DNA from: a virus
Reading direction: 5' to 3' (one strand)
Length of the DNA stretch: 36,919 nt
IMG/VR virus record: IMGVR_UViG_3300027909_000046
Span: 1 to 36,919 of that record
Below are positions 9,017 through 26,812 of this stretch, piece by piece. Made by a program: the position numbers and the translations under genes. The notes beneath the pieces are model-generated. The model had not been told where the DNA came from. It saw nothing but the letters and a program-made list of their open reading frames with translations, and ran no database searches. How positions within the stretch are numbered: position 1 is the first letter of the stretch; every line of letters begins with the position of its first letter.

Positions 9017-9292
9017 ATGCTAACATTTCTTCTTTGTTCATTCGCCTTCACTATCGGTTTCTTCGCTAAACATTTTATAGAAAATCTTAAAGACTCCGCA
9101 TACACCGAATATTATTGCCCTGATTGTAAACTCGTCAGTCGCTTACCAAAATACTGCCGATGGTCTCATCGTCATGAATGCTCTCATTCGCGAAATGAAA
9201 CCCTCATATCAAGAATGAATATCCCTAACCTCGTAGAACCTCAAGAAATCCACTCAGATCGAGTATCTGGTGAAGGTAGACCAATATGTTGA
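9017..9292 (+). CDS. Membrane-anchored zinc-ribbon protein, copy 2
   Basis: 91 residues, a clear paralogue of the protein at 7616-7879. It has the same N-terminal hydrophobic segment (MLTFLLCSFAFTIGFFAKHF) and the same zinc region (YYCPDCKL and YCRWSHRHEC). The tail is diverged and slightly longer (ends SGEGRPIC). Identical upstream spacing and ribosome site show it came by duplication. Both copies remain open with mostly silent differences in the zinc region, which suggests that both are maintained. Confidence 0.68.
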   Translation: MLTFLLCSFAFTIGFFAKHFIENLKDSAYTEYYCPDCKLVSRLPKYCRWSHRHECSHSRNETLISRMNIPNLVEPQEIHSDRVSGEGRPIC

Positions 9293-10413: not shown

Positions 10414-10851
10414 ATGAATGTAGCTAAAATAAACACACCAGGAAAATACGTATTCGGTAGGCCTGCCATGCATGATATTAAAAAGCTTGCTGAGCATATC
10501 GAAGAATGGTCTAAAAACCCAGTCAATTACGATATATTAGCTTGGATTGACGAGGTTGATATAGACCCCCGTCTACCTAGTGTGTGGGCTAAAAATGACG
10601 AAAACTTTGCCGTAGCGTATTATAAAGCAAAGAACCGTATAGCCCAAAGACGCACAGAAATGGTCATGACTGACGGAATGCAATGGAACCTATACAATAA
10701 GTATCAGCATAATTATGACATCCACAATAAAATCTTAGACTTCGAAGATATGCAAGTTATAGAATCTATGAAAAAGAACGATGACACCTCGAAACAACCT
10801 GTAACAGTCTATATAAATGACAAGCTCGTTAACAGTCAACCTCCCTCATAA
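10414..10851 (+). CDS. terS: Terminase small subunit (probable)
   Basis: 145 residues. Position immediately before and overlapping the large terminase by 35 nt is the standard place for the small subunit, which recognises phage DNA and starts packaging. Internally, a helix ending ILAWIDEVDIDPRLPSVWAK precedes NDENFAVAYYKAKNRIAQRR, as in small terminases with a DNA-binding helix pair followed by a K-A-K helix. The last 25 residues are polar and probably disordered. Sequence similarity is weaker than the context, so some doubt remains. Confidence 0.68.
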   Translation: MNVAKINTPGKYVFGRPAMHDIKKLAEHIEEWSKNPVNYDILAWIDEVDIDPRLPSVWAKNDENFAVAYYKAKNRIAQRRTEMVMTDGMQWNLYNKYQHNYDIHNKILDFEDMQVIESMKKNDDTSKQPVTVYINDKLVNSQPPS

Positions 10852-12133
10852 CTTCACACGCCGCCCCTATCAAGACGAGATCATCAAACAACTTGATGCA
10901 GGTATTAAGAAAGTTGTATGGGCATGCCATCGACGGGCAGGAAAAGATCTCACTATATTCAATTGGGTTATTCGTAAACTTCATGAAGTGGGCTTTATTG
11001 GTGCTGATTGCTTCTATGTATTTCCCTCCTATGCGCAAGCCAAGAAAGCAATATGGGATGCCTCCAACAGCGATGGCTTTCGTATTATAGACTACGCACC
11101 TTCAGCGTTAATCGCTCAAAAGAATCAACAGGAAATGAAAATAAGGTTTAAGAATGGAAGTTTGTTTCAACTTATTGGCAGCGATAATATCGATAGCCTT
11201 ATGGGGACAAACCCCAAGATTGTGGTGTTTAGTGAATACGCACTGCAAGACCCAGCGGCTTGGGATTACATTCGACCTATTCTTAAAGTTAACGGTGGTT
11301 ACGCTATCTTTATTAGTACTCCACGTGGTCGTAATCATTTCTATGAATTATTTCGTACCTCACAAACCACAGAAGGATGGTGGGGACAAAAGCTCACCAT
11401 CAAAGACACAAACGTTTTAACCTGGCAAGATGTTGAACAGGAGATGAAAGACGGCATGTCCGAGGAGTTAGCATTACAAGAGTATATGTGTAGCTTTGAC
11501 CGAGGTATTGAGGGTTCTTACTATGCAAAATTGATAAATAAAATGAGAGAAGAGGAGCGGATTTGTCCTATCAATTACGATCCTTACAAACTCGTTCACT
11601 GTGCCGCGGATTTAGGATGGGATGATTCAACAGCAATAATATTCTTTCAGATTTCCGGTGACACTATAAAGATTATAGATTGTGAAGAAAGATCATCCAC
11701 AACATTATCAGAATGGAAAAAAATATTAATAGATAAAGGTTATAAATATGGTGTTTACCTTTTCCCTCACGATGTTGAACAAATAGACGGATTAGGTTCG
11801 GGATGCACACGAAAAGAAATATTAGAAGACCTACAAATACCTGTCACAACTGTACCTAAGGCATTAATAGCAGATGGTATAGAGACAGTTAAAGCACATC
11901 TTTCATCTAGAATCATGATTGATTCAAAGAAATGTCAAGGATTATTGAAATCACTTGAAAACTATCATAGAGAATGGGATGATAAGCATAAGGTTTATGC
12001 AAATAAACCAAGACATGATTGGGCAAGTCATTATTGCGATGCAATGAGGTATCTTGTTCAAGGTCTAAAGTTTATCGCTAATTCAGGTTCAATCGAAAAT
12101 GACGCAAAAGCAGTCCGAAACTACTTCAGCTAA
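10817..12133 (+). CDS. terL: Terminase large subunit
   Basis: 438 residues, the packaging ATPase-nuclease. ATPase part: Walker A CHRRAGKD at 37-44, Walker B KIVVFSE at 134-140 with Glu140, and coupling motif ISTPRG at 166-171. Nuclease part (RNase H-like): Asp265 in AADLGWDDSTA, Asp319 in PHDVEQ, and Asp401/Asp408 in HDWASHYCDAMRY, giving the acidic cluster that binds Mg2+. The start overlaps the small subunit. The end overlaps an HNH gene by 35 nt in another frame. Length is slightly short but all motifs are present. Confidence 0.95.
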   Translation: MTSSLTVNLPHNFTRRPYQDEIIKQLDAGIKKVVWACHRRAGKDLTIFNWVIRKLHEVGFIGADCFYVFPSYAQAKKAIWDASNSDGFRIIDYAPSALIAQKNQQEMKIRFKNGSLFQLIGSDNIDSLMGTNPKIVVFSEYALQDPAAWDYIRPILKVNGGYAIFISTPRGRNHFYELFRTSQTTEGWWGQKLTIKDTNVLTWQDVEQEMKDGMSEELALQEYMCSFDRGIEGSYYAKLINKMREEERICPINYDPYKLVHCAADLGWDDSTAIIFFQISGDTIKIIDCEERSSTTLSEWKKILIDKGYKYGVYLFPHDVEQIDGLGSGCTRKEILEDLQIPVTTVPKALIADGIETVKAHLSSRIMIDSKKCQGLLKSLENYHREWDDKHKVYANKPRHDWASHYCDAMRYLVQGLKFIANSGSIENDAKAVRNYFS

Positions 12134-12632
12134 TATATGTGCTAATTGTGGTGGATATAGGGAGCCTAGAGGTAGTTCAAAAACAATATGCCAACCTTGC
12201 TATAGAAAAGAACATTTGAAGAATCGTCCCACCTGGTATATTGAACAGCTAAAAAAATCTAATAAAGCCAAAAGAGATGCTGTAAGAATAAAAAGAGAAT
12301 TACCATTAGAACAGCCAAGATGCATTGCTGAAAAAGGGCAAGGATGTACAGAACCAAATGGTTATAGGACTATATTTCTACCAGAATATAAAAAAGGAAA
12401 AAATAAAAATGGAAGAGTGTTAGAGCATGTTTATGTGATGTCGATGCATTTAGGAAGATATCTAGCAAAACATGAAAATGTTCATCATAAAAATGGTATT
12501 CGTGATGATAATAGAATTGAAAACTTAGAATTATGGAGTAAAGCCCAACCTCCAGGGCAACGAGTAGAAGATAAAATAGCATTCTACAAAGAATTTCTTG
12601 AACAATACGGATATAAAGTTGAAAAAAAATAA
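12099..12632 (+). CDS. HNH homing endonuclease between terminase and portal
   Basis: 177 residues. An N-terminal zinc knuckle (ICANCGGYREPRG ... CQPCY, about 13-34) is followed by a basic linker. Then comes an HNH_3-type core, VLEHVYVMSMHLGR (about 108-121) and VHHKNGIRDDNRIENLEL (128-145), with the catalytic His-His and the Asn residues. The final LWSKAQPPGQRVEDKI is also typical of free-standing phage HNH endonucleases. It overlaps the 3' end of the terminase gene by 35 nt, so it has inserted without breaking it. It leaves the portal gene with a weak TTG start 44 nt downstream. Confidence 0.88.
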   Translation: MTQKQSETTSANICANCGGYREPRGSSKTICQPCYRKEHLKNRPTWYIEQLKKSNKAKRDAVRIKRELPLEQPRCIAEKGQGCTEPNGYRTIFLPEYKKGKNKNGRVLEHVYVMSMHLGRYLAKHENVHHKNGIRDDNRIENLELWSKAQPPGQRVEDKIAFYKEFLEQYGYKVEKK

Positions 12633-12676: not shown

Positions 12677-14698
12677 TTGAAGAACGCCGATCCAATCCTA
12701 TACCCATCAAATGAAATAGATCGCTCACTTGCGCAAGCGAGACAGAAAAACTATTCTGATTGCATTAACATACTGCAAACGCAGTGGTATCAAGCCGACG
12801 TAGATCAGCGTTTTGCAATGGGTGATCAAGATATCTGGGGTTTAATCTTCCCGGGTGTGGCCACCTACCGCAGAAAGATGTTCAATTTCAATATTATCAA
12901 CCCAATCTTGCAAGCTATCAGTGGACAGCAGCGCCAAACTCGTAAATCAACTATCGCAATACCTGTTCATGGCGGTATGCAAAAGACTGCCGATCAGCTT
13001 ACTAAATGCTTGTATTACGTGCACAATCAATCAGGGGCTTATCAAGTATATTCTGATTGCTTTGAACAAGGTGCTTTGACGCAAGGTATAGGCTTTATTT
13101 CGATCTTTAAAGATACAACAAATGACCCTGTGTCGGGTGATATCAAACTGCGCTATATAGATTTCAAAAGCTGCCTATGTGATCCCTTTTTCCGTAAGCA
13201 TGATATGTCCGATGCTAGATTCTTTTGGACTAGACAGTTTTTTGGTAGAGAGGAAGCGGCTCAACTTTACTCCAATTTCCATGATGAAATAATGTCACTG
13301 CCAAAAGGAACATATCGCGATGACAAATTCTATTATATGCCAGAAGTCTACCAGATTCAATTTCCTAATATGGTTGCCCTAGATGAATATTGGTATGCAT
13401 CTACTCGTGAATGCGAATATCTCATAGATAAAGAGACAGGTGAGACACAAGAATTCTTTGGTGATGAAGAGGATGCCCGAGCAATCATGCACCAATTCAA
13501 AGATAGGCTAAAGATAGTAAAGAAAACCAAGCCTACAGTTCGCAGAAGCATAATACTCAATGACAGGACACTAATTGACGAGGCTAATCCCTATGGTATT
13601 GACCGATATCCTTACGTTCCTATGCTCGCTTATTTTACTCCCGATACTCCTTATTATGCTTATAAGTTTAGGGGTATTGTTCGTGATATGCGAGATGCTC
13701 AATATCTTTTTAATCGAAGGAAAGTCGCTGATCTTGACATTCTGGAAAGCCAACAGCAAGGGCTTAAAGTCAAAAAAGGTGCGCTTGTTACCCCCGATGA
13801 TAGTCTTAATACAGGTAATGGCCGTGTTCTATTTATAGATCCCAAATTCCAAATGCAAGATGTTGAGCCAATGCAAATTGTGCCTCCCTCCCCTGTTATG
13901 CTTCAAATGGAAGAAATGTTAATGAATATTGCCCATCGCATTGCTGGAGTTGATCCAAATGCTATGGGTATAGATGTAGATGATAAGGCCGGCATCATAT
14001 CTATGATGCGTCAAGCAGCAACAGCACGCAATCTACAGCGTGTGTTTGACCAGTTTGATGAAGCACAACGTCTATGTGGTGATATCATTTGCGAGATGAT
14101 TCAAAAGAATTGGACATTTGGAAAAGTAAAACAAGTCATTGGTGAAGACCCTACAGCCGAATTTGATAACAAAGCGTTTTTCAAATATGGGGCAAAGGTT
14201 GTCCAAGGCGTACTTACGGAATCTCAACAGCAACTTGAATTGGCTCAATTGTTACATGCACAGCAGATATTGCCTCCAGGTATATTCCCCATGGAGGAAA
14301 TACTTGAAGCAATGACCATACAAAATAAAGATCGCATCATCGAAAAGATTACTAAAGCACAACAAGCACAGCAGCAACAGCAGCAGAAGATGGAAGAGCT
14401 ACAAATGCAGCAGTTACAAATCGATAACCAAGCAAAAATATCCTATGCACACTCTCAAGAAGGTCTAGCAGCTGAAAGAATTCAAAAAATTCAAACGGAT
14501 CGTGCGGTAGCGGTTGATAAATTACGTAAATCGCAAGAGGAAGACACAGCCTCTATGCTAAATATCGTCAAGATTATTAAAGAATTGCAATCTATGGATA
14601 CCGAGCATTTAGCAAGTAAAATTGAAATGCTCCATCGAATTAACGAATTAGAATTTAACCCGGCAGCAGAAGCGGTAAAAGAACAGGTTGCCAAATAA
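12677..14698 (+). CDS. Portal protein, P22 type
   Basis: 673 residues. It forms the dodecameric ring at one capsid vertex through which DNA passes. Family features are the length, an early WYQADVDQRFAMGDQDIW helix, FNFNIINPILQAISGQQRQT, DIKLRYIDFKSCLCDPF, a central YPYVPMLAYFTPDT, and the helical barrel-like Gln-rich C-terminus (about 545-620, AQQAQQQQQQKMEELQMQQL). The only start in frame is TTG at 12677 with AGGT 9 nt upstream; no ATG lies between the HNH stop and this point. It follows terminase and HNH and precedes small head genes and scaffold, the normal P22-like order. Confidence 0.9.
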   Translation: MKNADPILYPSNEIDRSLAQARQKNYSDCINILQTQWYQADVDQRFAMGDQDIWGLIFPGVATYRRKMFNFNIINPILQAISGQQRQTRKSTIAIPVHGGMQKTADQLTKCLYYVHNQSGAYQVYSDCFEQGALTQGIGFISIFKDTTNDPVSGDIKLRYIDFKSCLCDPFFRKHDMSDARFFWTRQFFGREEAAQLYSNFHDEIMSLPKGTYRDDKFYYMPEVYQIQFPNMVALDEYWYASTRECEYLIDKETGETQEFFGDEEDARAIMHQFKDRLKIVKKTKPTVRRSIILNDRTLIDEANPYGIDRYPYVPMLAYFTPDTPYYAYKFRGIVRDMRDAQYLFNRRKVADLDILESQQQGLKVKKGALVTPDDSLNTGNGRVLFIDPKFQMQDVEPMQIVPPSPVMLQMEEMLMNIAHRIAGVDPNAMGIDVDDKAGIISMMRQAATARNLQRVFDQFDEAQRLCGDIICEMIQKNWTFGKVKQVIGEDPTAEFDNKAFFKYGAKVVQGVLTESQQQLELAQLLHAQQILPPGIFPMEEILEAMTIQNKDRIIEKITKAQQAQQQQQQKMEELQMQQLQIDNQAKISYAHSQEGLAAERIQKIQTDRAVAVDKLRKSQEEDTASMLNIVKIIKELQSMDTEHLASKIEMLHRINELEFNPAAEAVKEQVAK

Positions 14699-14739
14699 AA
14701 AATATCTCATTATTTGCAAATTTAACCAATAGGTGATTT

Positions 14740-14934
14740 ATGGGAAACTATGGAAACTTAGGAAAAGAGCAAGGCAACATGAAGCCAGATGTTGAGAACT
14801 ATCAACGTCCTGAAGCAGTGTTTTCACAAAAAGAGTTTAACAAAACTACTGAATATATCTCTCGTCATAATGCTCAAGAGTCAAAAGCAGCCGGAAAAAT
14901 AGAAAAACAAGCTTATAAGGGCCGTTACTCATGA
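14740..14934 (+). CDS. Small hypothetical protein after the portal
   Basis: 64 residues, Gly- and Lys-rich with no hydrophobic core (MGNYGNLGKEQGNMKPDVEN to AYKGRYS). AGGTGAT lies 5 nt before the ATG. Its stop overlaps the next start by 4 nt. Small unstructured proteins in this position are common in short-tailed phages; no function is known to me. Confidence 0.6.
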   Translation: MGNYGNLGKEQGNMKPDVENYQRPEAVFSQKEFNKTTEYISRHNAQESKAAGKIEKQAYKGRYS

Positions 14935-15098
14935 AAGAAGGCAAATACAATAAAGTTGCATGCCAAAAAGGCCCTATTGTAGCAGACCAGAAGACTATGA
15001 AGCATATGCCGCTTGCACAAGTTCAACGTGAAAGCGAGGCACAAAATAGACAGCTTCGTGATATGCAAACCCCAACTCTAATGATGCCAAAGCAATAA
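14931..15098 (+). CDS. Short hypothetical protein
   Basis: 55 residues (MKEGKYNKVACQKGPIVADQ to LMMPKQ), starting inside the stop of the gene before (ATGA). The open frame is bounded exactly by its neighbours, and the next ATG follows its stop by 1 nt. Polar, Gln- and Met-rich, with no motif recognised. Confidence 0.5.
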   Translation: MKEGKYNKVACQKGPIVADQKTMKHMPLAQVQRESEAQNRQLRDMQTPTLMMPKQ

Positions 15099-15099
15099 A

Positions 15100-15225
15100 A
15101 TGAAAAACGGTAAGAAAAAAGTTGTTAAAAAGGTTCTTAAGCATTTGAAAGAAGATACTAAAGAGTTCAAAGAACAGATTGCAGATGATAAGAAACTCAG
15201 CAAATCGCTAAAGAAAAAGAAGTAA
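15100..15225 (+). CDS. Lysine-rich mini-protein in the head gene cluster
   Basis: 41 residues (MKNGKKKVVKKVLKHLKEDT to KSLKKKK), helical and very basic with a small acidic patch (KEFKEQIADDKK). Its stop overlaps the next start (TAATG). It resembles the mini-proteins at 10063 and 31047 in composition, though not clearly in sequence. Confidence 0.5.
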   Translation: MKNGKKKVVKKVLKHLKEDTKEFKEQIADDKKLSKSLKKKK

Positions 15226-15767
15226 TGGAAAATAAAAGTCAATACGGTGATCGTAAGACAGTAGGGGCAATTTATCGTGATGCTCAAATTCATGGCGATA
15301 AATCCCCTATTCAAGCTGGTGATCTCACCAACGAGTTAATGTCCTCCCTTGTTTCTGATCTCAATGATACCATTCAATCAAGACCTTACGATGGTGAATG
15401 TGATTACTATATTACAGTACACGAAAAGAAAGACCGTCAGATGCCATGTGCATTACTTCGTCGCATCATTACTACAAAATACCGTCCATACCCGGAAGAT
15501 GACACAGTCGTTTTCAAGATCCATCGCAATGGTGACATTCGCTTTTGCTGGTGTCTCCCCCACTGGTCAGAGATGGATAATATGTTAGCCAACGAAGCTT
15601 TATTTGATTATGACATGCTAAAGGAAATTAGAGCGTGGAAGGGCATACAATTAGAGCATTTTGGATTCATGAAAGATGAAATGGGACATTGGACAGCTAA
15701 CCCCCATTATCAAGATGCCAAGCTTACTGAATTCTATAAGAAACCACCTAAGATTCTAGTCGCCTAA
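15225..15767 (+). CDS. Conserved head-region protein
   Basis: 180 residues. It contains DLNDTIQSRPYDGECDYYITVHEKKDRQ, LRRIITTKYRPYPEDDTVVF and FCWCLPHWSEMDNMLAN. I recall this pattern from a conserved hypothetical protein next to portal genes in several podovirus-like phages. Its biochemical role is not known to me. It follows the mini-protein with overlapping stop/start and ends convergently with a minus-strand gene, overlapping it by 20 nt. Confidence 0.65.
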   Translation: MENKSQYGDRKTVGAIYRDAQIHGDKSPIQAGDLTNELMSSLVSDLNDTIQSRPYDGECDYYITVHEKKDRQMPCALLRRIITTKYRPYPEDDTVVFKIHRNGDIRFCWCLPHWSEMDNMLANEALFDYDMLKEIRAWKGIQLEHFGFMKDEMGHWTANPHYQDAKLTEFYKKPPKILVA

Positions 15768-16044
15768 AGTCTAATGGAGTTTCTTTCCATCCATTACCTT
15801 TATCTTTAAGCTTCAAATACCAGGCGTTTTTTTTCTTTTCTTCGTGGAACTTGTCAGCACACTTTTGTGAGCAGTAGAAACTCCGCCCTTCTTCAATGGG
15901 GGCTTTGCAGAGCTTACAAGCCCTGCCCGAAAGTTCGGGGATGTCTTTCTCTGTTTTGTGTTTGTAAGTGCACCGATAGCATACTTCTTTTCCATAAAAA
16001 TCAGCCTCGCTGTATTCACGTAAACATTTAGGGCATATAGGCAT
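15748..16044 (-). CDS. Double zinc-finger protein on the opposite strand
   Basis: 98 residues with two cysteine clusters: CPKC and CYRC (about 4-26), then CKLCKAPIEEGRSFYCSQKC (about 43-62). The second is a treble-clef-like finger seen in several nucleic-acid-binding proteins. The C-terminal 35 residues are basic. It stands alone on the minus strand inside the plus-strand head operon and overlaps the end of its neighbour, so it is probably an independently acquired gene. A weak promoter-like TTGATT/TATTTA pair (17-nt spacing) lies upstream, within 16055-16100. Confidence 0.6.
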   Translation of the reverse strand: MPICPKCLREYSEADFYGKEVCYRCTYKHKTEKDIPELSGRACKLCKAPIEEGRSFYCSQKCADKFHEEKKKNAWYLKLKDKGNGWKETPLDFRRLES

Positions 16045-16092
16045 TTAATTCACTTTATTAATACTTGAAATTTAAATAATTCCTCTTTATTT

Positions 16093-16126
16093 CGCAATCA
16101 AAGGCTACCGCAAGCCTTAAATTGCG
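16093..16126. repeat. Long hairpin upstream of the scaffold gene
   Basis: CGCAAT pairs with ATTGCG and, inside it, AAGGCT with AGCCTT around the loop ACCGCA, giving a nearly continuous 14-bp stem with a small mismatch. No T-run follows on either strand, so it is not a simple terminator. It lies in the 129-nt gap between the minus-strand zinc-finger gene and the scaffold gene and could be a processing or stability element of the scaffold-capsid message. Confidence 0.4.
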
Positions 16127-16173
16127 TGATTGGTTGTAAAAGGCACTCACCAAGCCAAAAGGATTGTTAGCAC

Positions 16174-16908
16174 ATGGATGATGTCCAAGAAAATAGCGTA
16201 ATGCCAGAGGTCGCAACTCCAGAGACAAACCATGCAGTTCAAGCAGAGGCGCCACCTGTAGAAACTAAACAGGATAAAAACTGGCGTGAAATGCGTATGA
16301 AACAACAACAGCTCGAAAACGAACTGAGAATGCAAAAGGAAATGAATGAAAGGTTAATGCAAATGACATTGGCCAATCAGCCAACTCCTAAGCAAGAAGT
16401 CGATGAGCTAGATTCTCTCAGCGATGATGAGTTTCTTCCTAAAGGCAAAGTGAAAAAGCTTATGCAAAAAGAAAGAGATTCCATCAAGAAAGAAGCTCTC
16501 CAAGAGTTTGAGAATATTCAAAAGCAAAGGGAGCAGTCTAGATTCTTAGACAATCTAAAATCTCGGTTCAGTGACTTCGATGAAGTTGTCAATGCTGACA
16601 CAATGGCACTTTTAGAAGAAAAAGACCCTGAACTTGCCCAAACTATTGTTGAACTCAAAGACCCTTATAAAATTGGTGTACAGACATATAAGTACATCAA
16701 AGCAATGAAGTTATCTGAAAAAGTCCCCGATGCAAGACGTGCTAAGGAAGTTGATAAGAAGCTAGAGCAGAACGCTAAAACCGTTCAAACGCCTCAAGCT
16801 TACGACAAACGTCCGATGGCTCAAGCATTTAAGATGACCGATTCAGATTACAAAGACCTTTATAAGGAGATGATGGGTTACGCAAGTCAAGCAAGCTACA
16901 GTTATTAA
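16174..16908 (+). CDS. Capsid scaffolding protein (probable)
   Basis: 244 residues, very charged and mostly helical, directly before the capsid gene. Residues about 40-70 form a coiled coil (MRMKQQQLENELRMQKEMNE). An acidic stretch follows (ELDSLSDDEFLP), then helices to about 200, and a short C-terminal region ending MMGYASQASYSY. Scaffold proteins guide procapsid assembly and leave before DNA packaging. Composition, length and place between portal and capsid all fit. The start has AAAGGA 10 nt upstream. Sequence-level similarity to a known scaffold was not established. Confidence 0.75.
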   Translation: MDDVQENSVMPEVATPETNHAVQAEAPPVETKQDKNWREMRMKQQQLENELRMQKEMNERLMQMTLANQPTPKQEVDELDSLSDDEFLPKGKVKKLMQKERDSIKKEALQEFENIQKQREQSRFLDNLKSRFSDFDEVVNADTMALLEEKDPELAQTIVELKDPYKIGVQTYKYIKAMKLSEKVPDARRAKEVDKKLEQNAKTVQTPQAYDKRPMAQAFKMTDSDYKDLYKEMMGYASQASYSY

Positions 16909-16921
16909 ACTGAGGTTTTAG

Positions 16922-17169
16922 ATGACAGTTTCCATTTCTACTATGCCTCCGCAAATTCAGCAGAGGTATAATTCCAAGCTTCTGTCAACTCCAGAACGTA
17001 ATTTGATTCACAATCTTTTTGCTATGCCTGTTGAGTTGCCGGATAACCAAGGCTTTATTGATAGACAAAGCCGTTACGATCGATTGGATTTATTTCCAGT
17101 CCCACTAGATGATGCACAAACTAATCCACCTTCTCAGCAGTTGAATAGAGTGGATGTGGATTGCAGGGT
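16922..17169 (+). CDS. Major capsid protein, exon 1 (gene = 16922-17169 + 17933-18568 + 19278-19341)
   Basis: First exon, 82 codons plus two bases, with GAGG before the ATG. Unspliced reading would stop at 17233 after intron text. Joining the three exons gives 948 nt, a continuous 315-residue protein of the N4-gp56 major capsid family. That family has an N-terminal arm, VDVDCRV-type strand, a TNEDPIL...AARLGQ helix, SDMDDIV, and a late SDP...R-T-A-G then NDLW tail. Exon 1 carries the arm (MPPQIQQRYNSKLLSTPERN) up to RVDVDCRV. The splice point after 17169 follows CAGGGT, which pairs with GCCCTG at 17180-17185 with the required terminal U.G pair. Across the join the protein reads DCRV-RVYATYIVL. 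It follows the scaffold gene by 13 nt. Splicing is inferred from structure and reading frame; no RNA evidence is available. Confidence 0.88.
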
Positions 17170-17234
17170 TGACACACTAGCCCTGGATAAATCAGCCCTA
17201 ATTGACTTGGAAGCCTACGAACTAGTTGCATAGT

Positions 17235-17717
17235 TTATGGTGACAAGGGGCAAGTACGATACTGACCTTGTTGGTGAGTATTTATAGAACGTAATTGGAG
17301 ATAATAAGAATGTCGAAGATCATAAACATCATCTGGAACAGCAGTGCAAGCACCGCCTCCAAGAGGATTGGTATATGTTTCTCGCATTTTCATCATTATC
17401 TCGCAATGTTGTTTTTTGATTTTCAAGTATGGATAAATTTTAGCAAGAACAAAATCAAGTTTTTCTCCGCTGATATTGCATTCATAAACTGGTTTACGAT
17501 TACTGTTTTTAATCTGTTTTGTATCAGATTTTTTCCAGTATCCAAAACCAAAAAGTTCAGAAACCCATTTAATTTGGGATTCTGTGACACTTGCAAATTT
17601 CAAAATACAACGATGATGAGGTTTTTTAAGTGGATTTCTGTGCTTAACATAATCCATGTAAAAACATCCATCACCGTCTATATAACCAGCAAGATAAGAA
17701 CAATCAATTTTCTTCAT
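17235..17717 (-). CDS. LAGLIDADG homing endonuclease in intron 1, antisense
   Basis: 160 residues from MKKIDCSYLAG at 17717, which has GAGG 6 nt upstream. The longer frame to 17822 lacks a ribosome site and would read through the P7-P8 core. A single LAGLIDADG motif is at 8-17 (LAGYIDGDGC). Others in the family (I-CreI type) work as homodimers and cut a long intron-insertion site to drive intron spread. A beta-rich DNA-binding region follows (KFASVTESQIKWVSELFGFG), and a second helical part ends YYLQLRSINTHQQG. Its last dozen codons overlap the P4/P5 strands of the intron on the other strand. It is transcribed against the capsid gene. Confidence 0.85.
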   Translation of the reverse strand: MKKIDCSYLAGYIDGDGCFYMDYVKHRNPLKKPHHRCILKFASVTESQIKWVSELFGFGYWKKSDTKQIKNSNRKPVYECNISGEKLDFVLAKIYPYLKIKKQHCEIMMKMRETYTNPLGGGACTAVPDDVYDLRHSYYLQLRSINTHQQGQYRTCPLSP

Positions 17718-17733
17718 ATAAACCTCTATACTG

Positions 17734-17755
17734 CAATGAGTAAATATATAGTATA
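17734..17755 (-). promoter_or_regulatory. Conserved motif upstream of the intron 1 endonuclease
   Basis: On the minus strand TATACTATATATTT then CTCATTG appears 17 nt before the start codon. A similar element (TATACAATAATTAG then TCATTG) lies 32 nt before the endonuclease gene of intron 2. It could be a shared promoter, or simply common ancestry of the two introns. Confidence 0.35.
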
Positions 17756-17932
17756 TGGGCATAAAGAGCAAATAGATTGTGTACGGCCTGAACGACTTAA
17801 GCGGGTAGACATGCAAAAGCATGAAGCGAAAGTCTGCTCTCTATAGAAATATAGAGAGGGAGATCCGAAGAGGTTTCCCCGCCATAATTAGTTAACGAAT
17901 AAACTAAATATGGTTAATAAAGTAACAGAATG

Positions 17933-18568
17933 TAGAGTATATGCAACATATATAGTATTAACCAGGCAGGTTACTATTACTAACGAGGATCCCATATTAA
18001 ATTCAGCAGCAGCTCGTTTAGGCCAAGCCGCTAGAGAAACTCAGGACGCCCTACAGAGAGACAACCTAGAAAGTACAGCTTCCGTGGTAAACTCAGTAGG
18101 CGGTTCGAATGGTGACTTGCCAACAGAGCTTGCACTTAGCGACATGGATGATATTGTGGCATTGTTACAAGATAACGACGCTGAATACATCACAAACATG
18201 ATTCCAGGCGAGCTAAAGATTGGTACATCACCAATTGGTGATGCCTACGGAATGATGTGCTCGACACGTATGATTCCGGTGTTAAATAACGTCCAAGGGT
18301 TTGTACGTAAATTCCAATACCCAAATGTAGATAACGTGCTTTCTACAGAATGGGGAGGAGTAAACAATGTCAGAGTTTTTGTGTCATCCCAAGGTAGTGT
18401 AACACCAAATGCCTCATTAGCGGGTGCTGATGTTGCAAACTGTTTTGTAGCTGCGAAAGAGTCTTACAAAGTGGTGTGGCAAGCAGGCGGTAAGATGAAG
18501 TTTATCTATCTGCCTCCAGGTTATAACTCGGACCCCTGCATGCTTCGGCATACAGCAGGATGCTCGTT
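17933..18568 (+). CDS. Major capsid protein, exon 2
   Basis: 636 nt carrying most of the capsid fold. Starting at the last base of a codon, it reads RVYATYIVLTRQVTITNEDP, then the family helix ILNSAAARLGQAARET, NSVGGSNGDLPTEL, SDMDDIVALL, GTSPIGDAYGMM, NVQGFVRKFQYPN, LSTEWGGVNNVRVFVSS, and ends FIYLPPGYNSDP ... RHTAGCS plus two bases. An ATG at 17910 in the same frame lies inside the intron and is not a real start. The 5' boundary follows intron-terminal AGAATG, and the same bases end intron 2. The 3' boundary follows CTCGTT. Confidence 0.86.
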
Positions 18569-18663
18569 TGACGATATAGACGAGGGTAAATCTTCTCTGA
18601 TTGACTTGGAAGCCTGTGATTACGCTTTGGCAGCGTAATTATGGTGACAAGGCGGAAGTATAA

Positions 18664-19086
18664 TTAATGGTTATTATGATAACGAATCTCGTTAAGATAT
18701 TTTTCTCTAAGATCAAGAATCTCTTGGGTGACCCTATAAGATTCTTTTTCGGTAAATGTTTTACGAAATTCAAGAAGAAGTTCAGCTTGTTTTCTTTTTA
18801 CAATAAGATGCGGGATAACAAGAGGAAACAATTTGTCCATTATAGGACGTGTTGTGTACCAAGTATGTTGAATTTTCCAATTGGAATTTTCATGGTTGCG
18901 ATCTCTGGTTATCACTTTGCCTCCAAAGGTGTTTTGAATCCATCTAATCAATGGTTCATTTGTATTGACGATTTGAAGTCTTGGAAAATAATCAAACCAG
19001 TTAACTCTTTTAACTTTTTGAATATAGATACAACCTTCTCCGTCAATAATGCCAGCCATATACGCAATTTGTTCTTTAGACCACAT
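18664..19086 (-). CDS. LAGLIDADG homing endonuclease in intron 2, antisense
   Basis: 140 residues from MWSKEQIAYMAG at 19086, with AAGGAG 6 nt upstream; the frame extends to 19203 without a ribosome site. A single LAGLIDADG motif is at 9-18 (MAGIIDGEGC), again implying a homodimer. A beta-rich region follows (FPRLQIVNTNEPLIRWI, then FGGKVITRDRN), and a C-terminal helix ends LDLREKYLNEIRYHNNH. It is related to the intron 1 enzyme (shared YxAGxIDGxGC, the I-x-W-I/V segment, and LR-x-x-Y near the end) but well diverged. Unlike the intron 1 gene, it stops 4 nt before the P4/P5 core. Confidence 0.87.
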   Translation of the reverse strand: MWSKEQIAYMAGIIDGEGCIYIQKVKRVNWFDYFPRLQIVNTNEPLIRWIQNTFGGKVITRDRNHENSNWKIQHTWYTTRPIMDKLFPLVIPHLIVKRKQAELLLEFRKTFTEKESYRVTQEILDLREKYLNEIRYHNNH

Positions 19087-19117
19087 ATGAACTCCTTTTT
19101 TAATAAAGATAATATCA

Positions 19118-19137
19118 CAATGACTAATTATTGTATA
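19118..19137 (-). promoter_or_regulatory. Conserved motif upstream of the intron 2 endonuclease
   Basis: On the minus strand TATACAATAATTAG then TCATTG lies 32 nt before the ATG at 19086. It matches the element at 17734-17755 in 18 or so aligned bases apart from small gaps. Candidate promoter; evidence is the pairwise similarity only. Confidence 0.35.
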
Positions 19138-19277
19138 CCGTGATCGACTGAGCGAGAAGAATCCGAAAGGATATGCGACAGTCAAGACTAGTGAGGAAAC
19201 CACTAGAGAAGCTTCCGAAGAGTAGCTTCCGCCCTAGAAATAGGGTCAGTAGGTTGGCAACCGAAAGTAATAGAATG

Positions 19278-19341
19278 TTATCAAGGCCAATGTATTACAA
19301 ACGACCTGTGGATTCAAAACCTACGCTCAACCGGCATATAA
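19278..19341 (+). CDS. Major capsid protein, exon 3
   Basis: 64 nt giving the last 21 residues after a shared codon: YQGQCITNDLWIQNLRSTGI and a stop at 19339-19341. The I-x-N-D-x-W-x-x-N-L-R pattern is the usual end of N4-gp56-type capsid proteins and completes the RHTAG segment of exon 2. The stop codon lies inside the Shine-Dalgarno (AAGGAGG) of the next gene. No ATG-started frame covers it, so it would be missed without the intron model. Confidence 0.8.
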
Positions 19342-20878: not shown

Positions 20879-21240
20879 TGACTACCAATGAGTTCGTTCC
20901 TAATGTTGTGTTAATTGAGGACATTACGAACGAACAACATGCAGTAGTGACATTTACAACAGATCATAACTTTGTTTTGAATGAATACATATCACTTAGG
21001 GTAAGTCGACCTTATGGAATGAAAGAGATAAACAATAGAAGAGGGAAAGTGCTAGGACTTACTAGCGATACAGTGACTTTAGACATTGATAGTATAAATT
21101 TCACCCCTTTTGTTGTCCCTGGTGATTTAGCTAAGACAACTCCCCCTTGTGCAGTTCCATCAAGTTCAGGGGTGAATTTAGCAGAGTATTCCCCAACAAT
21201 GATCCTTAACGATTGTTTTGATAATAGGCTTGTGGAATGA
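20878..21240 (+). CDS. Truncated paralogue of the decoration-like protein
   Basis: 120 residues. HAVVTFTTDHNFVLNEYISLRV, NRRGKVLGLTSDTVTLDID and CAVPSSSGVNL line up with RVYFTVANDFTPGEIISLRI, NKAARVLSVV ... SVLLDLD and VAVPSSSGVV of the protein at 19354-20445. The shared end is LNDCFDNR versus LLDTFDNR. It is therefore a one-domain relative of the C-terminal half of that protein. Overlaps on both sides (stop/start) show tight co-translation. Confidence 0.68.
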   Translation: MTTNEFVPNVVLIEDITNEQHAVVTFTTDHNFVLNEYISLRVSRPYGMKEINNRRGKVLGLTSDTVTLDIDSINFTPFVVPGDLAKTTPPCAVPSSSGVNLAEYSPTMILNDCFDNRLVE

Positions 21241-22571
21241 GTATTGCAACCTTGGCAGATATCATAATAAAAGTCCGAAAATTAACGGGTTCGGCAACAA
21301 CTAACCAGTTAACGGATGCTCAGATCATTGACTATATCAATAGCTTTTATCTTTACGACTTCCCAGCGCAATTTCGCAGTCTAAAGTTAAAAGACAAATA
21401 TACGTTCAATACTCAACGGGGAATAGACACATATCCTTTCGACAGTGAGCATTATACTACAATTGAGATGCCTTGCTATGTTGCTAAACGTGAAGTGAAT
21501 TTATTCCAAGACCCTTGGTCATTTTATGGGGTTTGGTACAATTGGCAATACCAAGAGACATTAGCAACAGGGAACGGTAGCAATGGCGGTGAAAATGGCG
21601 CCATAACAGCGGTCTCTTTAGTTAATCCAATACAAATTACAAGTGCAGCTCATGGACTTGCGACAGGTGATGAAATTGCAATAACCGGAATAGTAGGAAC
21701 AACAGCATTAAACAATCTATATTATACCATCACCTTTGTTGATGCCAACAACTTCACACTGGACGGTATTGATGGAACAAACCCTATTTATCAAGCATAT
21801 AGCGCACCAAGCGGTTATTGGACATTTGGCGCATATTCTGGCACTTGCACAGCCCATCCGCTAATTCGCAGCACTAGAAATAAGCCTATGGTGCAGACAA
21901 ATACAGTGCCAACCACTAATTTTTTGACAGATCCAACATCAACCTCATTTCCTCAAGCAAATATTGGCAGGGTTCAAAACCTTTTAATAACAGCAAATCT
22001 ATCTTATGGAAGTACATTGAATGTTACTGATGATGGAGCAGGAAATCTTATAGGAGATTGCTTAGAAGGTGGTGTTATTGATTATGAAACAGGCGAGGTT
22101 ATCGGTCTGATATTTACACAGGCAATACCATCAGGAAACGATATCACAATAGAATATAACCCAGCCAATCCACCAAACTTAGCCATTCCACAAGCTATAA
22201 TGTTCTTTCAGAATCAATTTACTTTACGTCCAGTGCCCGATAAGGGTTACACTGTGGAATTGATAGCTTATAGACAGCCTTCGCAAGCTCTTTTAGGAAC
22301 TACAGATCCAAATAATCCGACATTGACAGGAACTCCAGAACTGTTAGAATGGCATGAAACGCTGGCTTTCGGAGCCGCCAAAAAGATCTACGAAGATCGC
22401 TTAGATCCTGATGGTGTAGCGTTGATGGATAAATCTTTAACCGAACGATATTCTCTTAATGAAACTAGAACTTGCGCACAGTTAGGGAAACAATCTATGA
22501 ATTCCATATTTAGAGACCAACTATCTCAAAATTATGGATCAGGAGGATGGGGGTTTGGAAGTGGTGGATAA
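21237..22571 (+). CDS. Head-tail adaptor / tail-tube-like protein with inserted beta domains
   Basis: 444 residues. The N-terminus (LADIIIKVRKLTGSATTNQL, DAQIIDYINSFYLYDFPAQF) is the helical start seen in adaptors that sit under the portal in short-tailed phages. Residues about 120-190 are a beta insertion of the HGLATGDEIAITGI ... NFTLDGIDGT type (FCCH-like). Near residues 245-305 there is a DDGAGNLIGDC ... GGVIDYETGEVIGL unit like two in the protein at 24269. The C-terminal region (FRPVPDKGYTVELIAY-type, WHETLAFGAAKKIYEDR) returns to the adaptor fold. It overlaps the preceding gene by 4 nt. Confidence 0.65.
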   Translation: MSIATLADIIIKVRKLTGSATTNQLTDAQIIDYINSFYLYDFPAQFRSLKLKDKYTFNTQRGIDTYPFDSEHYTTIEMPCYVAKREVNLFQDPWSFYGVWYNWQYQETLATGNGSNGGENGAITAVSLVNPIQITSAAHGLATGDEIAITGIVGTTALNNLYYTITFVDANNFTLDGIDGTNPIYQAYSAPSGYWTFGAYSGTCTAHPLIRSTRNKPMVQTNTVPTTNFLTDPTSTSFPQANIGRVQNLLITANLSYGSTLNVTDDGAGNLIGDCLEGGVIDYETGEVIGLIFTQAIPSGNDITIEYNPANPPNLAIPQAIMFFQNQFTLRPVPDKGYTVELIAYRQPSQALLGTTDPNNPTLTGTPELLEWHETLAFGAAKKIYEDRLDPDGVALMDKSLTERYSLNETRTCAQLGKQSMNSIFRDQLSQNYGSGGWGFGSGG

Positions 22572-23090
22572 ATGGCAACATGCAGAAAGTGTAATAAAAC
22601 ATTTAAATACACTCATTTCAGAAATGAAAGATACTGTAGTTTTGAGTGTCACATTAAAAAAAACGTATTAGAAAACGAAAACGGATGTTGGTTGTTAAAT
22701 ACCCAACCAAGAAAAGATGGGTATATACAAATGACTTTTAGAAGAATGACAGGGCTGGCACATAGATTATCGTATATGAATTATAAAGGTAATATTGATG
22801 ACGATTTAATCGTTTGTCATACATGCGATAATAGAAATTGCATAAATCCAGATCATTTGTACCTAGGCACACATTCAACAAATGCAATTGATAGACAAAA
22901 CAGAAATCCTAGAGCAGATCAAAAAGGTCAAAACAACCATGCTGCGAAGTTAAATGAATGTGATGTAAAAAACATTAGAAAAGAAGCAAAAAAAGAATTA
23001 GATTTAGAAAAACTGGCTGCAAAATATGGTATAAGCCATCGTTATATAAAAGATGTGATAAATGGCAGAAGATGGAGCCATGTAAACTAG
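22572..23090 (+). CDS. HNH homing endonuclease with N-terminal zinc finger
   Basis: 172 residues, starting with the base after the adaptor stop. A zinc finger CRKCNKTFKYTHFRNERYC (4-22) comes first. The HNH domain follows (NGCWLLNTQPRKDGY, LAHRLSYMNYKG, then VCHTCDNRNCINPDHLYLG at about 93-111), the same core as in the HNH-HTH protein at 3110. The C-terminal tail AKLNECDVKNIRKEAKKELD ... GRRWSHVN binds DNA in this family and resembles the remnant at 993-1181. It is inserted neatly between two tail genes without damaging them. Confidence 0.9.
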   Translation: MATCRKCNKTFKYTHFRNERYCSFECHIKKNVLENENGCWLLNTQPRKDGYIQMTFRRMTGLAHRLSYMNYKGNIDDDLIVCHTCDNRNCINPDHLYLGTHSTNAIDRQNRNPRADQKGQNNHAAKLNECDVKNIRKEAKKELDLEKLAAKYGISHRYIKDVINGRRWSHVN

Positions 23091-23687: not shown

Positions 23688-24272
23688 ATGTCATTTATAG
23701 TTGGAATGCCTGAAAGCGGTGCAACATTAGGAAGCACAAGAAAATTATTTGTCAATGAATTAGCCGGAATGCGATCTACAATGTCAGAAAACCACGTAGA
23801 TCAAAATACACCTGTAGATTTTGGAAAACATGAATTTATTCAATTTACAAATGTAACCGCTTCAACAACATCAGCAACGGAATTAGCGTTATACAACAAG
23901 TCCGTATCAGGCAATCAACGTTTTTTCATTAGGCAGCCATCATCGGGAACAGAAATACAAATAAGTGGAATAGATCCTATTGCAGAAAAGAAGGGCTGTG
24001 TATTTCTTCCAGGTGGCTTGTTGTTGCAATGGGGAAAAAGTGTTGTTCCTAAAAATACAGGAGGAAAATTAACGTATTTTGCCAAAAAAGGGGCAGACGG
24101 TTTTGTGCGTTTGAGGATTATAGGTCTAACTGTTGCATCTAATGCCGTGACAATTGGACATACTAACGCTTTACCGGTAACTCCCGCAGATGATGGATTT
24201 ACAGCCTTTCTTTCTTCAATTCAAAGTACCGATACAGAATTTAATTATTGGGTAATAGGTACAATGACATGA
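23688..24272 (+). CDS. Tail tip/fibre protein with gp53-like C-terminal domain, copy 2
   Basis: 194 residues, paralogue of the previous gene. MSFIVGMPESGATLGSTRKL, LAGMRSTMSENHVDQN, FFIRQPSSGTEIQISGIDP, FLPGGLLLQWGKS and FNYWVIGTMT align one-to-one with the previous protein, with a shared core and diverged final 60 residues. Changes are concentrated in the C-terminal half, as expected if the two proteins contact different ligands. Its last codons overlap the next start (ATGA). Confidence 0.65.
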   Translation: MSFIVGMPESGATLGSTRKLFVNELAGMRSTMSENHVDQNTPVDFGKHEFIQFTNVTASTTSATELALYNKSVSGNQRFFIRQPSSGTEIQISGIDPIAEKKGCVFLPGGLLLQWGKSVVPKNTGGKLTYFAKKGADGFVRLRIIGLTVASNAVTIGHTNALPVTPADDGFTAFLSSIQSTDTEFNYWVIGTMT

Positions 24273-26812
24273 GCCTTACACCCATACTAATAGCAGGATA
24301 TGACACAAATTCAGGTTATGAGACTGATAAGAAGCCTTTTATGCTTCCAGATCAGGCTTTTCCTGTTTTAGAGAATGCTTATGTATGGAGAAATAGGGTT
24401 GTTAAACGTGATTTAAATGAGAAGCTAGGTAGATTAAGACGGGTATTTTTAGCCCAATCTTTAGGTAATTCGGGTGCTTCACCTTGGACATTCAATATAT
24501 TTTCTTTGTCTAGTATAAATAATTCGAATCCAGTCAATCCAGAATATCAGCCTAACGCCGAATTAGAATGTGGTTCAGTAGTTATCACAATAGGTGTTAT
24601 AGTTTTCACAGATCAAGGAGACGGTACTCTAACAAGCCCGACACCAGGGAATAGCGGTGTAATCAATTACGTTACTGGATCGGTAACTCTCACTCATACA
24701 GCAGGTGCCGGAGTAGCAACAACAGCTAATTTTAACTACTTCCCTTCACTTCCAGCAATGGGAATATGGACAAGAGACCTAACTACCGTAAACGATGAGC
24801 AAACCATATTCTTTGATACCGTTTACGCTTATATAAATACAGGAGCAGGATTTCAAGAGTGGATACCTGGAACGGTGTGGAGTGGCTCGGATTCAGATTT
24901 CTTTCTCGCAACCAACTATAGAGGAATTGAAGCGGCAGATAGATTGTTTTTTGTAACAAATTTTGTAAATAATGCTTCCAATCCAATGAGATATTCAAAT
25001 GGTTCCACGTGGACGGATTTCGTCCCCCTTATTGGAGGACAACAACAGCAAGAATCACTAGGTACAGTAGTAACCCCTTGGCTTGCATTTGCGGGAGGTT
25101 TAACACAACTTCCGATAATTGAAGGAAGTGTTTCTATTACCGTTGGAGATGTTACATTTACCGACGAACAAGAAGATGGGACATTAACAGGATACCCCAC
25201 AAGCAATACAGGCACAATAAATTACAATACCGGGGCAATTACATTAGCATTCAGCCCGGCATTAAAATTAGATACACCTGTTGGTGCTACTTATAATTAC
25301 GGTAACTTCTATCTATTCCAAGCAAAGATATTAATCCCCTATTATGGTAGGTTGCTAGCCCTTAATACATGGGAGGGGGAAACAATTGGCAACAGCCAAA
25401 ACATTTACAATAGATGTCGGTTCTCCCAAATAGGTAGCCCGATTCAAAATGATGCTTGGCGATCTGATGTGTTTGGTAAGGGCGGTTTCATTGACGCACC
25501 TGTTGCAGAAGACATAATAAGTGCAATATTCTATAAGAATACTCTTATTGTATTTTTCGAACGTTCCACGTGGCAACTTCGTTATGTCGGTGAATATGGA
25601 CTACCATTTGTATGGGAAAGGATATCATCCGATTTTGGTTCAGAGTCTACCTTCTCAACAATTCTCTTTGATGATGGCGTCCTAACTGTTGGTGATAAAG
25701 CAATAGTAACCTCAAGTGGAACAAACGTATCTAGAATAGATGAAAAGATCCCCGACCTAGTATTTACCTTTCGTAATGCGAATAATGGGATTGCTCGTGT
25801 ACATGGTGCTAGAAACTTCCAAAAAGAAGTAGTCTACTGGTGCTACGCAGATTCAAACGACCAAGAAGTAGGTCAAAAGTTTCCCAATAAGATATTACTA
25901 GCCAACTATAGGAATAAGACATTTGCCAAAATGCGCGATAGCGTTACTTGCTTCGGTACTTATCAAGCACCAACAGGTGTTACATGGGACGATCTAATGG
26001 CAATGTGGGAGGATACTTCAATATATTGGGAAGATGTAGATTCTCAAAGTGAATTCCCCTTTGTTGTATGCGGAAATCAACAAGGATACATTAGCTACTA
26101 TCAGCAAAGTTCAAATGTTGAGGAATGTCAATCTCTTTCCATAACTGGTGTTGATTTAACGACTACACCGATTCAGTTAACGGTAATCAATCATAATCTA
26201 TTGACCGAGGAAGTAATATACATTCAAGAGATGCACTTTAGGGATAGTGTTACTAAAGCCCCTCTTGCAACGGATTTAAATGATGAAATATACCAAGTAA
26301 CCGTACTCGATACGGACACAATTTCCCTAGCAAAGTGGGATGGTGAAATTTATTCCGTAGATTTTGATTTTACCCCGGTAACAACAGCGGAATATATAGG
26401 TTGCGGAGAGATAACACTACTTCCTAAGATGACCATTCAAACTAAAGACTTTAATCCATTCCAAAAGCAAGGTGTAAATCTAAAGATTTCCTATGTTGAT
26501 TTACTTACAGACGCAACCCCAGATTCTGCCGTTTCAGTCAGTCTATACATAAATTCCGCAACTAATGTTCAAGCAAATGTCCCCGTGGGAAACACTAAAG
26601 TAAATACATCAATACCGGCAACTTACTACCCTAACGTTTTATCCGACTACGCATGGCATAGGTTTTTTGCAACAGCTGCCGGACAATACATGAGAGTTGA
26701 ATTATCATATGATGATAGCCTGATGAATGAAATAACAACACATGAAAGCAAATTTGTATTGAACGCAATGCAATTGTGGATGAGGTCAGGATCTAAAAAT
26801 TTACTAGGATAA
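24269..26812 (+). CDS. Large tail hub/nozzle protein (P22 gp10-like or T7 gp12-like)
   Basis: 847 residues from ATG 24269; a TTG at 24248 would add seven residues but lies inside the preceding gene. Begins MSLTPILIAGYDTNSGYETD with an LPDQAFPVLENAYVWRNRVV strand typical of tail nozzle or hub proteins. The middle repeats YxxIxxAxxxFF ... strands consistent with a beta-propeller (RLLALNTWEGE, SAIFYKNTLIVFFERSTWQL, GIARVHGARNFQKEVVYWCY). Two inserted units ending GTINYNTGAITL and GVINYVTGSVTL match one in the adaptor at 21237. In phages of this layout such proteins close the tail. Family assignment is by architecture and order. Confidence 0.65.
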   Translation: MSLTPILIAGYDTNSGYETDKKPFMLPDQAFPVLENAYVWRNRVVKRDLNEKLGRLRRVFLAQSLGNSGASPWTFNIFSLSSINNSNPVNPEYQPNAELECGSVVITIGVIVFTDQGDGTLTSPTPGNSGVINYVTGSVTLTHTAGAGVATTANFNYFPSLPAMGIWTRDLTTVNDEQTIFFDTVYAYINTGAGFQEWIPGTVWSGSDSDFFLATNYRGIEAADRLFFVTNFVNNASNPMRYSNGSTWTDFVPLIGGQQQQESLGTVVTPWLAFAGGLTQLPIIEGSVSITVGDVTFTDEQEDGTLTGYPTSNTGTINYNTGAITLAFSPALKLDTPVGATYNYGNFYLFQAKILIPYYGRLLALNTWEGETIGNSQNIYNRCRFSQIGSPIQNDAWRSDVFGKGGFIDAPVAEDIISAIFYKNTLIVFFERSTWQLRYVGEYGLPFVWERISSDFGSESTFSTILFDDGVLTVGDKAIVTSSGTNVSRIDEKIPDLVFTFRNANNGIARVHGARNFQKEVVYWCYADSNDQEVGQKFPNKILLANYRNKTFAKMRDSVTCFGTYQAPTGVTWDDLMAMWEDTSIYWEDVDSQSEFPFVVCGNQQGYISYYQQSSNVEECQSLSITGVDLTTTPIQLTVINHNLLTEEVIYIQEMHFRDSVTKAPLATDLNDEIYQVTVLDTDTISLAKWDGEIYSVDFDFTPVTTAEYIGCGEITLLPKMTIQTKDFNPFQKQGVNLKISYVDLLTDATPDSAVSVSLYINSATNVQANVPVGNTKVNTSIPATYYPNVLSDYAWHRFFATAAGQYMRVELSYDDSLMNEITTHESKFVLNAMQLWMRSGSKNLLG

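What the first reader, a model, noticed from the sequence alone, without database searches (positions are those of the whole stretch)
16922..19341. Major capsid gene in three exons split by two related group I introns
Unspliced, the frame stops at 17233 and restarts only inside intron text. Removing 17170-17932 and 18569-19277 yields one continuous 315-residue N4-gp56-type capsid protein whose joins read DCRV-RVYATYIVL and RHTAGCS-F-YQGQCITNDLW. Both introns show P1 with a terminal U.G pair, P3, P4, P5, P7, P8 and P9 pairings and end in AGAATG. Two introns in a single capsid gene, with the last exon only 64 nt, is unusual.
Basis: partly seen in the sequence, partly recalled or inferred. Interest (0 to 1): 0.9.

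Follow-up and report, generated by a model that had tools for sequence, protein, structure and literature searches.

The report
Phage capsid gene split by ribozymes
This phage's shell-protein gene is cut into three pieces by two self-removing RNA introns, and many of its relatives also carry tiny introns without a catalytic engine that appear to borrow the engine of the next intron, which, if shown at the bench, would be a natural first.

Summary
Confirmed. Joining 16922-17169, 17933-18568 and 19278-19341 gives a 315-aa N4-gp56-family major capsid protein (TIGR04387, 116 bits, cut-off 60). 79-80 uninterrupted IMG/VR homologues (78-89% identical) read gap-free across both joins. Both insertions are group I introns: the P3-P9 core, with P3/P7 pseudoknot and bulged P7, covaries strongly across 31 sequences, and a covariance model built only from relatives hits exactly these two places (E 1e-17, 6e-19). 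Rfam misses them. Nearest precedent: the capsid intron of mycobacteriophage LittleE.

The larger result lies in relatives. Half of the sampled capsid genes carry introns, up to six interruptions in one. 86 distinct 'mini-introns' of 28-59 nt keep group I splice signals (U.G-ended P1, P10, terminal G) but have no catalytic core. All 69 that could be checked (clade B) lie just upstream of a full-size intron, and their tails pair with the exon 7-9 nt before that intron's 5' splice site, wherever that site is. I infer excision by the neighbour's ribozyme. The window has no mini-intron; splicing is untested.

The parts
16922..17169 (+). Major capsid gene, exon 1 (248 nt; ends CAGGGT)
17170..17932 (+). 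Group I intron 1 (763 nt), after codon 82 plus 2 nt. IGS GCCCTG 17180-17185 pairs with CAGGGT 17164-17169 (U.G at the joint); P10 CTA 17177-17179 with TAG 17933-17935; P7 A17792 + GACTT 17794-17798 with AAGTC 17830-17834 + T17835; P3 has one A.A mismatch
   Evidence: direct reading; alignment A2; CM hit 17785-17910 E 1.4e-17
17235..17717 (-). LAGLIDADG homing endonuclease gene 1 (160 aa from MKKIDCSYLAGYIDGDG, single motif), antisense, in L6 of intron 1; its 3' end overlaps the antisense of the P4/P6 core (17235-17257)
   Evidence: Pfam LAGLIDADG_1 E 2.5e-4 (just under the curated cut-off), PHROG 5046 E 2.8e-17
17933..18568 (+). Major capsid gene, exon 2 (636 nt; ends CTCGTT)
18569..19277 (+). 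Group I intron 2 (709 nt), after codon 294 plus 2 nt. IGS GACGAG 18579-18584 pairs with CTCGTT 18563-18568; P3 18591-18597 with 19154-19160; P7 T19144 + GACTG 19146-19150 with CAGTC 19179-19183 + A19184; weak P10 candidate GATA 18573-18576 with TATC 19279-19282
   Evidence: direct reading; alignment A2; CM hit 19137-19253 E 6e-19
18664..19086 (-). LAGLIDADG homing endonuclease gene 2 (140 aa from MWSKEQIAYMAGIIDGEG), antisense, in L6 of intron 2; preceded by AAAGGAG
   Evidence: Pfam LAGLIDADG_1 E 7e-7, above the curated cut-off; 27-28% identical to endonuclease 1
19278..19341 (+). Major capsid gene, exon 3 (64 nt including stop)

Best explanation
The major capsid gene (N4-gp56 family) of this uncultured tailed phage holds two mobile group I introns. 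After transcription each RNA folds into a P1-P9 core, a guanosine attacks after the U of the U.G pair in P1, and the exons are ligated after the terminal G, so that the 315-aa capsid protein can be made. Each intron carries in L6, on the opposite strand, a single-motif LAGLIDADG endonuclease that presumably cuts intronless capsid genes and drives homing. Shown here: gene structure, exact joints, group I architecture by covariation, endonuclease homology, and gain or loss between near-identical phages. Inferred: splicing activity, endonuclease activity, homing. The gene is an intron hot spot in this phage family. In relatives the same machinery has reached a further state: coreless mini-introns (28-59 nt, only P1/P10 signals, a terminal G and a docking tail) that I infer are removed by the core of the next full intron downstream.
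For: Joints. Covariation: (P7 pair across the bulge AU 22, GC 6, UA 3; all 7 P3 pairs covary). Model from relatives hits only these two places, and none of nine intronless loci scanned. Endonucleases. Gain or loss: contig L085, 97.6% identical over 14238-18658, keeps intron 1, lacks intron 2 and has an 801-nt intron after codon 285 instead. Other relatives carry related introns at other capsid sites (after codons 78, 88, 95, 102, 103, 115, 117, 143, 183, 227, 260, 264, 279, 285). Mini-introns.
Against: No RNA data of any kind. Rfam RF00028 does not match. P3 of intron 1 has an A.A mismatch and P10 of intron 2 is weak. No convincing promoter for the antisense endonuclease genes (2 promoter-like sites found against 8.1 in shuffles).
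Confidence: 0.95

Rival explanations
1. The insertions are dead or degenerate and the capsid gene is a pseudogene or is made only as a truncated N-terminal fragment.
For: Unspliced, the frame stops at 17233; no expression data.
Against: All three exons stay 78-89% identical to intact homologues over all 315 residues with no stop or frame error; the window shows no second capsid gene in the family scans made; the intron cores keep their pairing in both copies.
Confidence: 0.03
2. The insertions are removed by something other than group I splicing (group II intron, intein, translational bypassing).
For: Rfam's group I model does not match.
Against: The reading frame is closed inside both insertions (no intein); take-off and landing codons do not match; group I P1/P3/P7/P8/P9 pairs covary in detail.
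Confidence: 0.02
3. For the mini-introns of relatives: they are bypassed by the ribosome, like the T4 gene 60 coding gap or the mitochondrial byp elements, instead of being cut out of the RNA.
For: Similar size range, out of frame, and a hairpin that includes the last codon before the gap, as in gene 60 (PMC5009743; byp sizes from memory).
Against: Take-off codon (GAT or GGT) and the last triplet of the gap never match in the lists; P10 and the tail helix have no role in bypassing; every checkable case has a full-size intron downstream (69/69).
Confidence: 0.1
4. Mini-introns occur next to full introns only because they hitch-hike in co-conversion tracts during homing of the full intron, not because they depend on it.
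For: They lie 26-86 nt from the full intron, inside a plausible co-conversion tract.
Against: The mini tail is complementary to the exon that ends 7-9 nt before the downstream 5' splice site in 68 of 76 cases, whether that site is 26, 48, 50, 66 or 86 nt away; tails taken from loci with another downstream site do not fit (helix score 21.0 against 12.1). In L108 the tail skips a nearer intron (after codon 88) and pairs beside the one after codon 102.
Confidence: 0.1

Closest known systems
Mycobacteriophage LittleE (Cluster J) major capsid intron (Pope et al. 2013, PMC3706429)
   Same: About 0.8-kb intron in the major capsid gene, exon ends in U, intron ends in G, LAGLIDADG-like frame on the bottom strand; splicing shown there by RT-PCR and N-terminal sequencing.
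   Different: One intron instead of two; the authors left the intron class open ('most likely a group I'); no family-wide intron hot spot and no mini-introns described.
Group I introns of Bastillevirinae and other phages (PMC11878797)
   Same: Group I introns with loop-encoded endonucleases; small exons between neighbouring introns; exon skipping seen in the SIOphi terminase.
   Different: The word 'capsid' does not occur in that paper and the endonucleases listed are mostly HNH; no coreless introns described.
Engineered trans-excision ribozymes and 'spliceozymes' (PMC4094466)
   Same: A group I core removes an internal RNA segment that has no core, using P1, P10 and further recognition helices; earlier engineered versions excised up to 28 nt in vitro.
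   Different: Man-made and acting between molecules. The mini-introns of relatives appear natural, carry their own IGS and dock by a tail helix beside the next intron of the same RNA.
T4 gene 60 bypassing and mitochondrial byp elements (PMC5009743)
   Same: Short out-of-frame inserts in coding sequence with a hairpin at the 5' edge.
   Different: [quoted passage not shown] group I splice signals are present; tied to a neighbouring intron.

Membership tests
Group I introns (window introns 1 and 2) | 5' exon ends in U paired with G of the IGS (P1); intron ends in G | tested here: met
   CAGGGU/GCCCUG and CUCGUU/GACGAG; both introns end AGAATG
Group I introns (window introns 1 and 2) | Core helices P3, P4, P5, P6, P7, P8 with P3/P7 pseudoknot and bulged P7 | tested here: met
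   39 pairs over 31 sequences, 97.5% paired, 27 pairs with changes on both sides, covariation 0.584 against 0.182 shuffled and at most 0.113 slid. P4 hardly varies in that set.
Group I introns (window introns 1 and 2) | Match to Rfam RF00028 (Intron_gpI) | tested here: not met
   No match to E = 10; also none for HEG-less relatives. A convenience test of one model, not a defining property of the class; the model from relatives matches at 1e-17 and 6e-19.
Group I introns (window introns 1 and 2) | Guanosine-dependent self-splicing | not testable with these tools
   needs RNA
N4-gp56 family major capsid protein (TIGR04387) | Score above the curated cut-off over most of the protein | tested here: met
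   116 bits against 60, residues 6-307; PHROG 1357 major head protein E 3e-22; Pfam PF25209 only 17.7 bits against 27
LAGLIDADG homing endonucleases | LAGLIDADG motif and domain match | tested here: met
   Endonuclease 2 30.5 bits against 23.1; endonuclease 1 22.3 bits, just under the cut-off, but PHROG 5046 E 2.8e-17; motifs LAGYIDGDG and MAGIIDGEG
LAGLIDADG homing endonucleases | Cleavage of the intronless site | not testable with these tools
   needs protein
Group I introns (mini-introns of relatives) | P1 with U.G, P10, terminal G | tested here: met
   P1 6-10 bp in 86/86, P10 at least 3 bp in 82/86; P10 follows the Thr codon: ACCT/AGGT 38, ACGT/ACGT 10, ACTT/AAGT 10, ACAT/ATGT 6. P1 was partly a search criterion and U/G ends were favoured by the aligner; P10 was neither.
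Group I introns (mini-introns of relatives) | Own catalytic core P3-P9 | tested here: not met
   28-59 nt in all, too short for a core. They work like group I introns in their splice signals but are not autonomous group I introns.
[quoted passage not shown]
   GAT or GGT against AGG, ATG, TTG, AAG and the like

The most novel reading that the evidence does not exclude
In this phage family group I introns have split into autonomous introns and dependent, coreless mini-introns of 28-59 nt. A mini-intron keeps only its guide (P1/P10), its terminal G and a tail that docks on the exon beside the next intron, whose ribozyme core then removes first the mini-intron and later itself. This would be the first natural case of one group I ribozyme serving several introns, a small-scale parallel to the way spliceosomal introns are thought to have lost their catalytic parts to a shared machine. 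The window carries the autonomous form only.
Probability: 0.75. Interest if true: 0.95.

Novelty: new variant of a known kind. Interest (0 to 1): 0.8.

Why it matters
For the window alone: a very highly expressed, essential structural gene that must be spliced twice, with antisense homing genes and introns that Rfam does not detect, so such capsid genes are probably annotated as broken or missed in metagenomes. For the family: a rich natural series (no intron, one to five full introns, full intron or coreless intron at the same site) in which the loss of the catalytic core by an intron and its dependence on a neighbour can be followed and tested. If the dependence is confirmed, a step that is usually only postulated for the origin of spliceosomal introns would have a living group I counterpart.

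Tried and rejected
Rfam scans at gathering level and up to E = 10 on the window and on 13 relatives: no group I hit; kept as a negative. tRNA scan: none. Search for other interrupted genes in the window with 877 frames of intronless relatives: two gaps (21560-21820, 25020-25300) lie inside open frames and look like in-frame protein domains, so no further intron or mini-intron was found. Isolated phages: only 21-25% identical capsids. Genome contigs: seven hits in metagenome-assembled bins of unrelated taxa, no reliable host. Translational bypassing for the mini-introns: codons do not match. A guide in trans for a 4-nt insertion at codon 117 in four relatives: none found. Papers on naturally coreless group I introns or on introns in N4-gp56 genes: none found in the held library, which lacks most subscription journals; one further search was rejected for its syntax.

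Full report
OBSERVATION. The window is a 36,919-base virus record. Joining 16922-17169, 17933-18568 and 19278-19341 gives 948 nt and 315 aa, an N4-gp56-family major capsid protein (NCBIfam TIGR04387, 116 bits against a cut-off of 60; PHROG 1357). It sits after terminase (10817-12133), a P22-like portal (12677-14698) and a 244-aa gene at the usual scaffold position (16174-16908; no family match). A search of IMG/VR gave 80 loci (78-89% identity) that encode the protein without interruption; 80 span join 1 and 79 join 2, none with a gap. The exon ends are therefore fixed by homology, independently of any intron model. Five near-identical contigs show that intron 1 is not an assembly error.

INTRON CLASS. 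Rfam gives nothing. I therefore collected related introns. From capsid genes of relatives, resolved with a spliced protein-to-DNA aligner, I took 29 introns of 195-228 nt without an endonuclease gene and aligned them with the two window introns, the endonuclease insert cut out. The structure P3-P9.2 with a P3/P7 pseudoknot and bulged P7 is paired in 97.5% of cells; 27 of 39 pairs change on both sides; the covariation score is 0.584 against 0.182 for shuffles and at most 0.113 for slid partners. A covariance model of the 3' half, built from 35 relatives without the window, has two significant matches in the window: 19137-19253 (6e-19) and 17785-17910 (1.4e-17); the next is E 0.048. Nine intronless loci gave no match. 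These are group I introns; I did not assign a subgroup.

ENDONUCLEASES. Both introns carry, antisense and in L6 (between the strands of P6a), a single-motif LAGLIDADG gene: 17235-17717 and 18664-19086. Both start codons have purine-rich ribosome-binding-like sequences upstream (GAGGTTTAT, AAAGGAG). Relatives of endonuclease 1 (35-50% identity) lie in introns after codon 102, and a relative of endonuclease 2 (44%) after codon 103, so introns or their endonucleases have moved between sites of the same gene. Contig L085, 97.6% identical to the window over 14238-18658, has intron 1 but instead of intron 2 an 801-nt intron after codon 285: recent gain or loss. This arrangement has a tested precedent, the LittleE capsid intron (PMC3706429).

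HOT SPOT. In clade B (about 45% identical to the window's capsid), sampled by an exon-1 pattern that ignores introns, 46 of 93 complete genes are intronless, 21 have one interruption, 26 two or more; L296 has six. So two introns in one capsid gene is ordinary here, though I know of no such description in the literature.

MINI-INTRONS. Some relatives have an extra insertion of only 38-59 nt after codon 80 (clade A) or 28-59 nt after codon 87 (clade B). In 86 distinct cases the insertion cannot be read through (16 of length divisible by three contain a stop; the others shift the frame), while the flanking protein is continuous with homologues. Each holds a guide complementary to both flanks: P1 of 6-10 bp with U.G at the joint, and P10 in which the mini-intron follows the free third base of the Thr codon of the 3' exon (ACC/GGT, ACG/CGT, ACT/AGT, ACA/TGT). 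In clade B the P10 mean is 4.64 bp against at most 3.82 in 1000 shuffles; in clade A, with 12 cases and almost one exon sequence, P10 does not exceed shuffles, but a few compensatory changes are visible (GTCGAT with GTCGAC in L097, L099, L100; TGTAG with CTACA in L103, L122). All end in G. There is no room for a core.

DEPENDENCE. All 69 clade-B mini-introns whose gene is covered to codon 150 have a full-size intron after codons 88-117; in the unbiased sample it is 16 of 16 with a mini-intron against 14 of 79 without (Fisher p = 2.6e-10). The clade-A cases with enough sequence have one after codon 102 (0 of 79-80 of the uninterrupted set by construction). Core matches of the covariance model occur in all 58 clade-B mini-intron loci scanned. 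The tail of the mini-intron forms a contiguous helix with the exon, and the exon strand ends 7-9 nt before the downstream 5' splice site in 68 of 76 cases, although that site is 26, 48, 50, 66 or 86 nt away. Several exceptions show the same helix with a one-nucleotide bulge or mismatch (L305, L348, L383, L111). The helix score is 21.0 against 12.1 for tails from loci with another downstream site, 15.5 for tails swapped within a site and 12.4 for shuffled tails. In L108 the tail skips an intron after codon 88 and pairs beside the one after codon 102. Seven to nine nucleotides is the length of the exon strand of the downstream P1, so the tail helix would abut that P1. Two loci (L275, L311) have a full-size intron at the mini-intron's own site, as expected if mini-introns are introns that lost their core.

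MODEL. The downstream core first accepts the P1/P10 of the mini-intron, held at its entrance by the tail helix, removes it, then splices its own intron. Signals, coupling and absence of a core are shown by sequence; the catalysis and its order are inferred. Engineered group I ribozymes do such trans-excision (PMC4094466).

LIMITS. Two of the mini-intron searches used P1 as the search pattern, so P1 is not independent evidence there; it is independent for L087-L089 (found by endonuclease), for ten clade-B loci found by the intron core and for the loci. The aligner favours U and G at intron ends. Related sequences are not independent events. Nothing here is RNA evidence. The window itself contains no mini-intron.

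VERDICT. Window: confirmed, a new variant of a known kind (two group I introns with antisense LAGLIDADG genes in an N4-gp56 capsid gene). Family: a strong candidate for something not described before.

Noticed in passing
L087 (3603-3643, minus), L140, L313 and 83 other distinct cases: Coreless 28-59-nt mini-introns with group I splice signals and a tail that pairs beside the next intron's 5' splice site.
   Followed up: yes
L207, L354, L355, L410, capsid codon 117: A 4-nt out-of-frame insertion (TATG, TTCG, TACG, TATG) at exactly the site where other relatives have a ~200-nt group I intron; all four have a ~1.14-kb intron after codon 143. No guide in trans was found.
   Followed up: partly
L275, L311, capsid codon 87: Full-size introns (731 and 720 nt) at the site that in most relatives with an interruption there holds a mini-intron.
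   Followed up: partly
window 3110-3646, 12099-12632, 22572-23090: Three free-standing HNH_3 endonuclease genes on the plus strand, besides the two intron-borne LAGLIDADG genes.
   Followed up: no
window 21560-21820 and 25020-25300: In-frame stretches of about 250 nt absent from relatives inside genes 21237-22571 and 24248-26812; probably inserted protein domains.
   Followed up: no
window 7616-7879 and 9017-9292: Two nearly identical small genes (MLTFLLCSFAFT...), a local duplication.
   Followed up: no
window 31914-34493: Long repetitive glycine/alanine/serine-rich fibre-like protein (859 aa).
   Followed up: no
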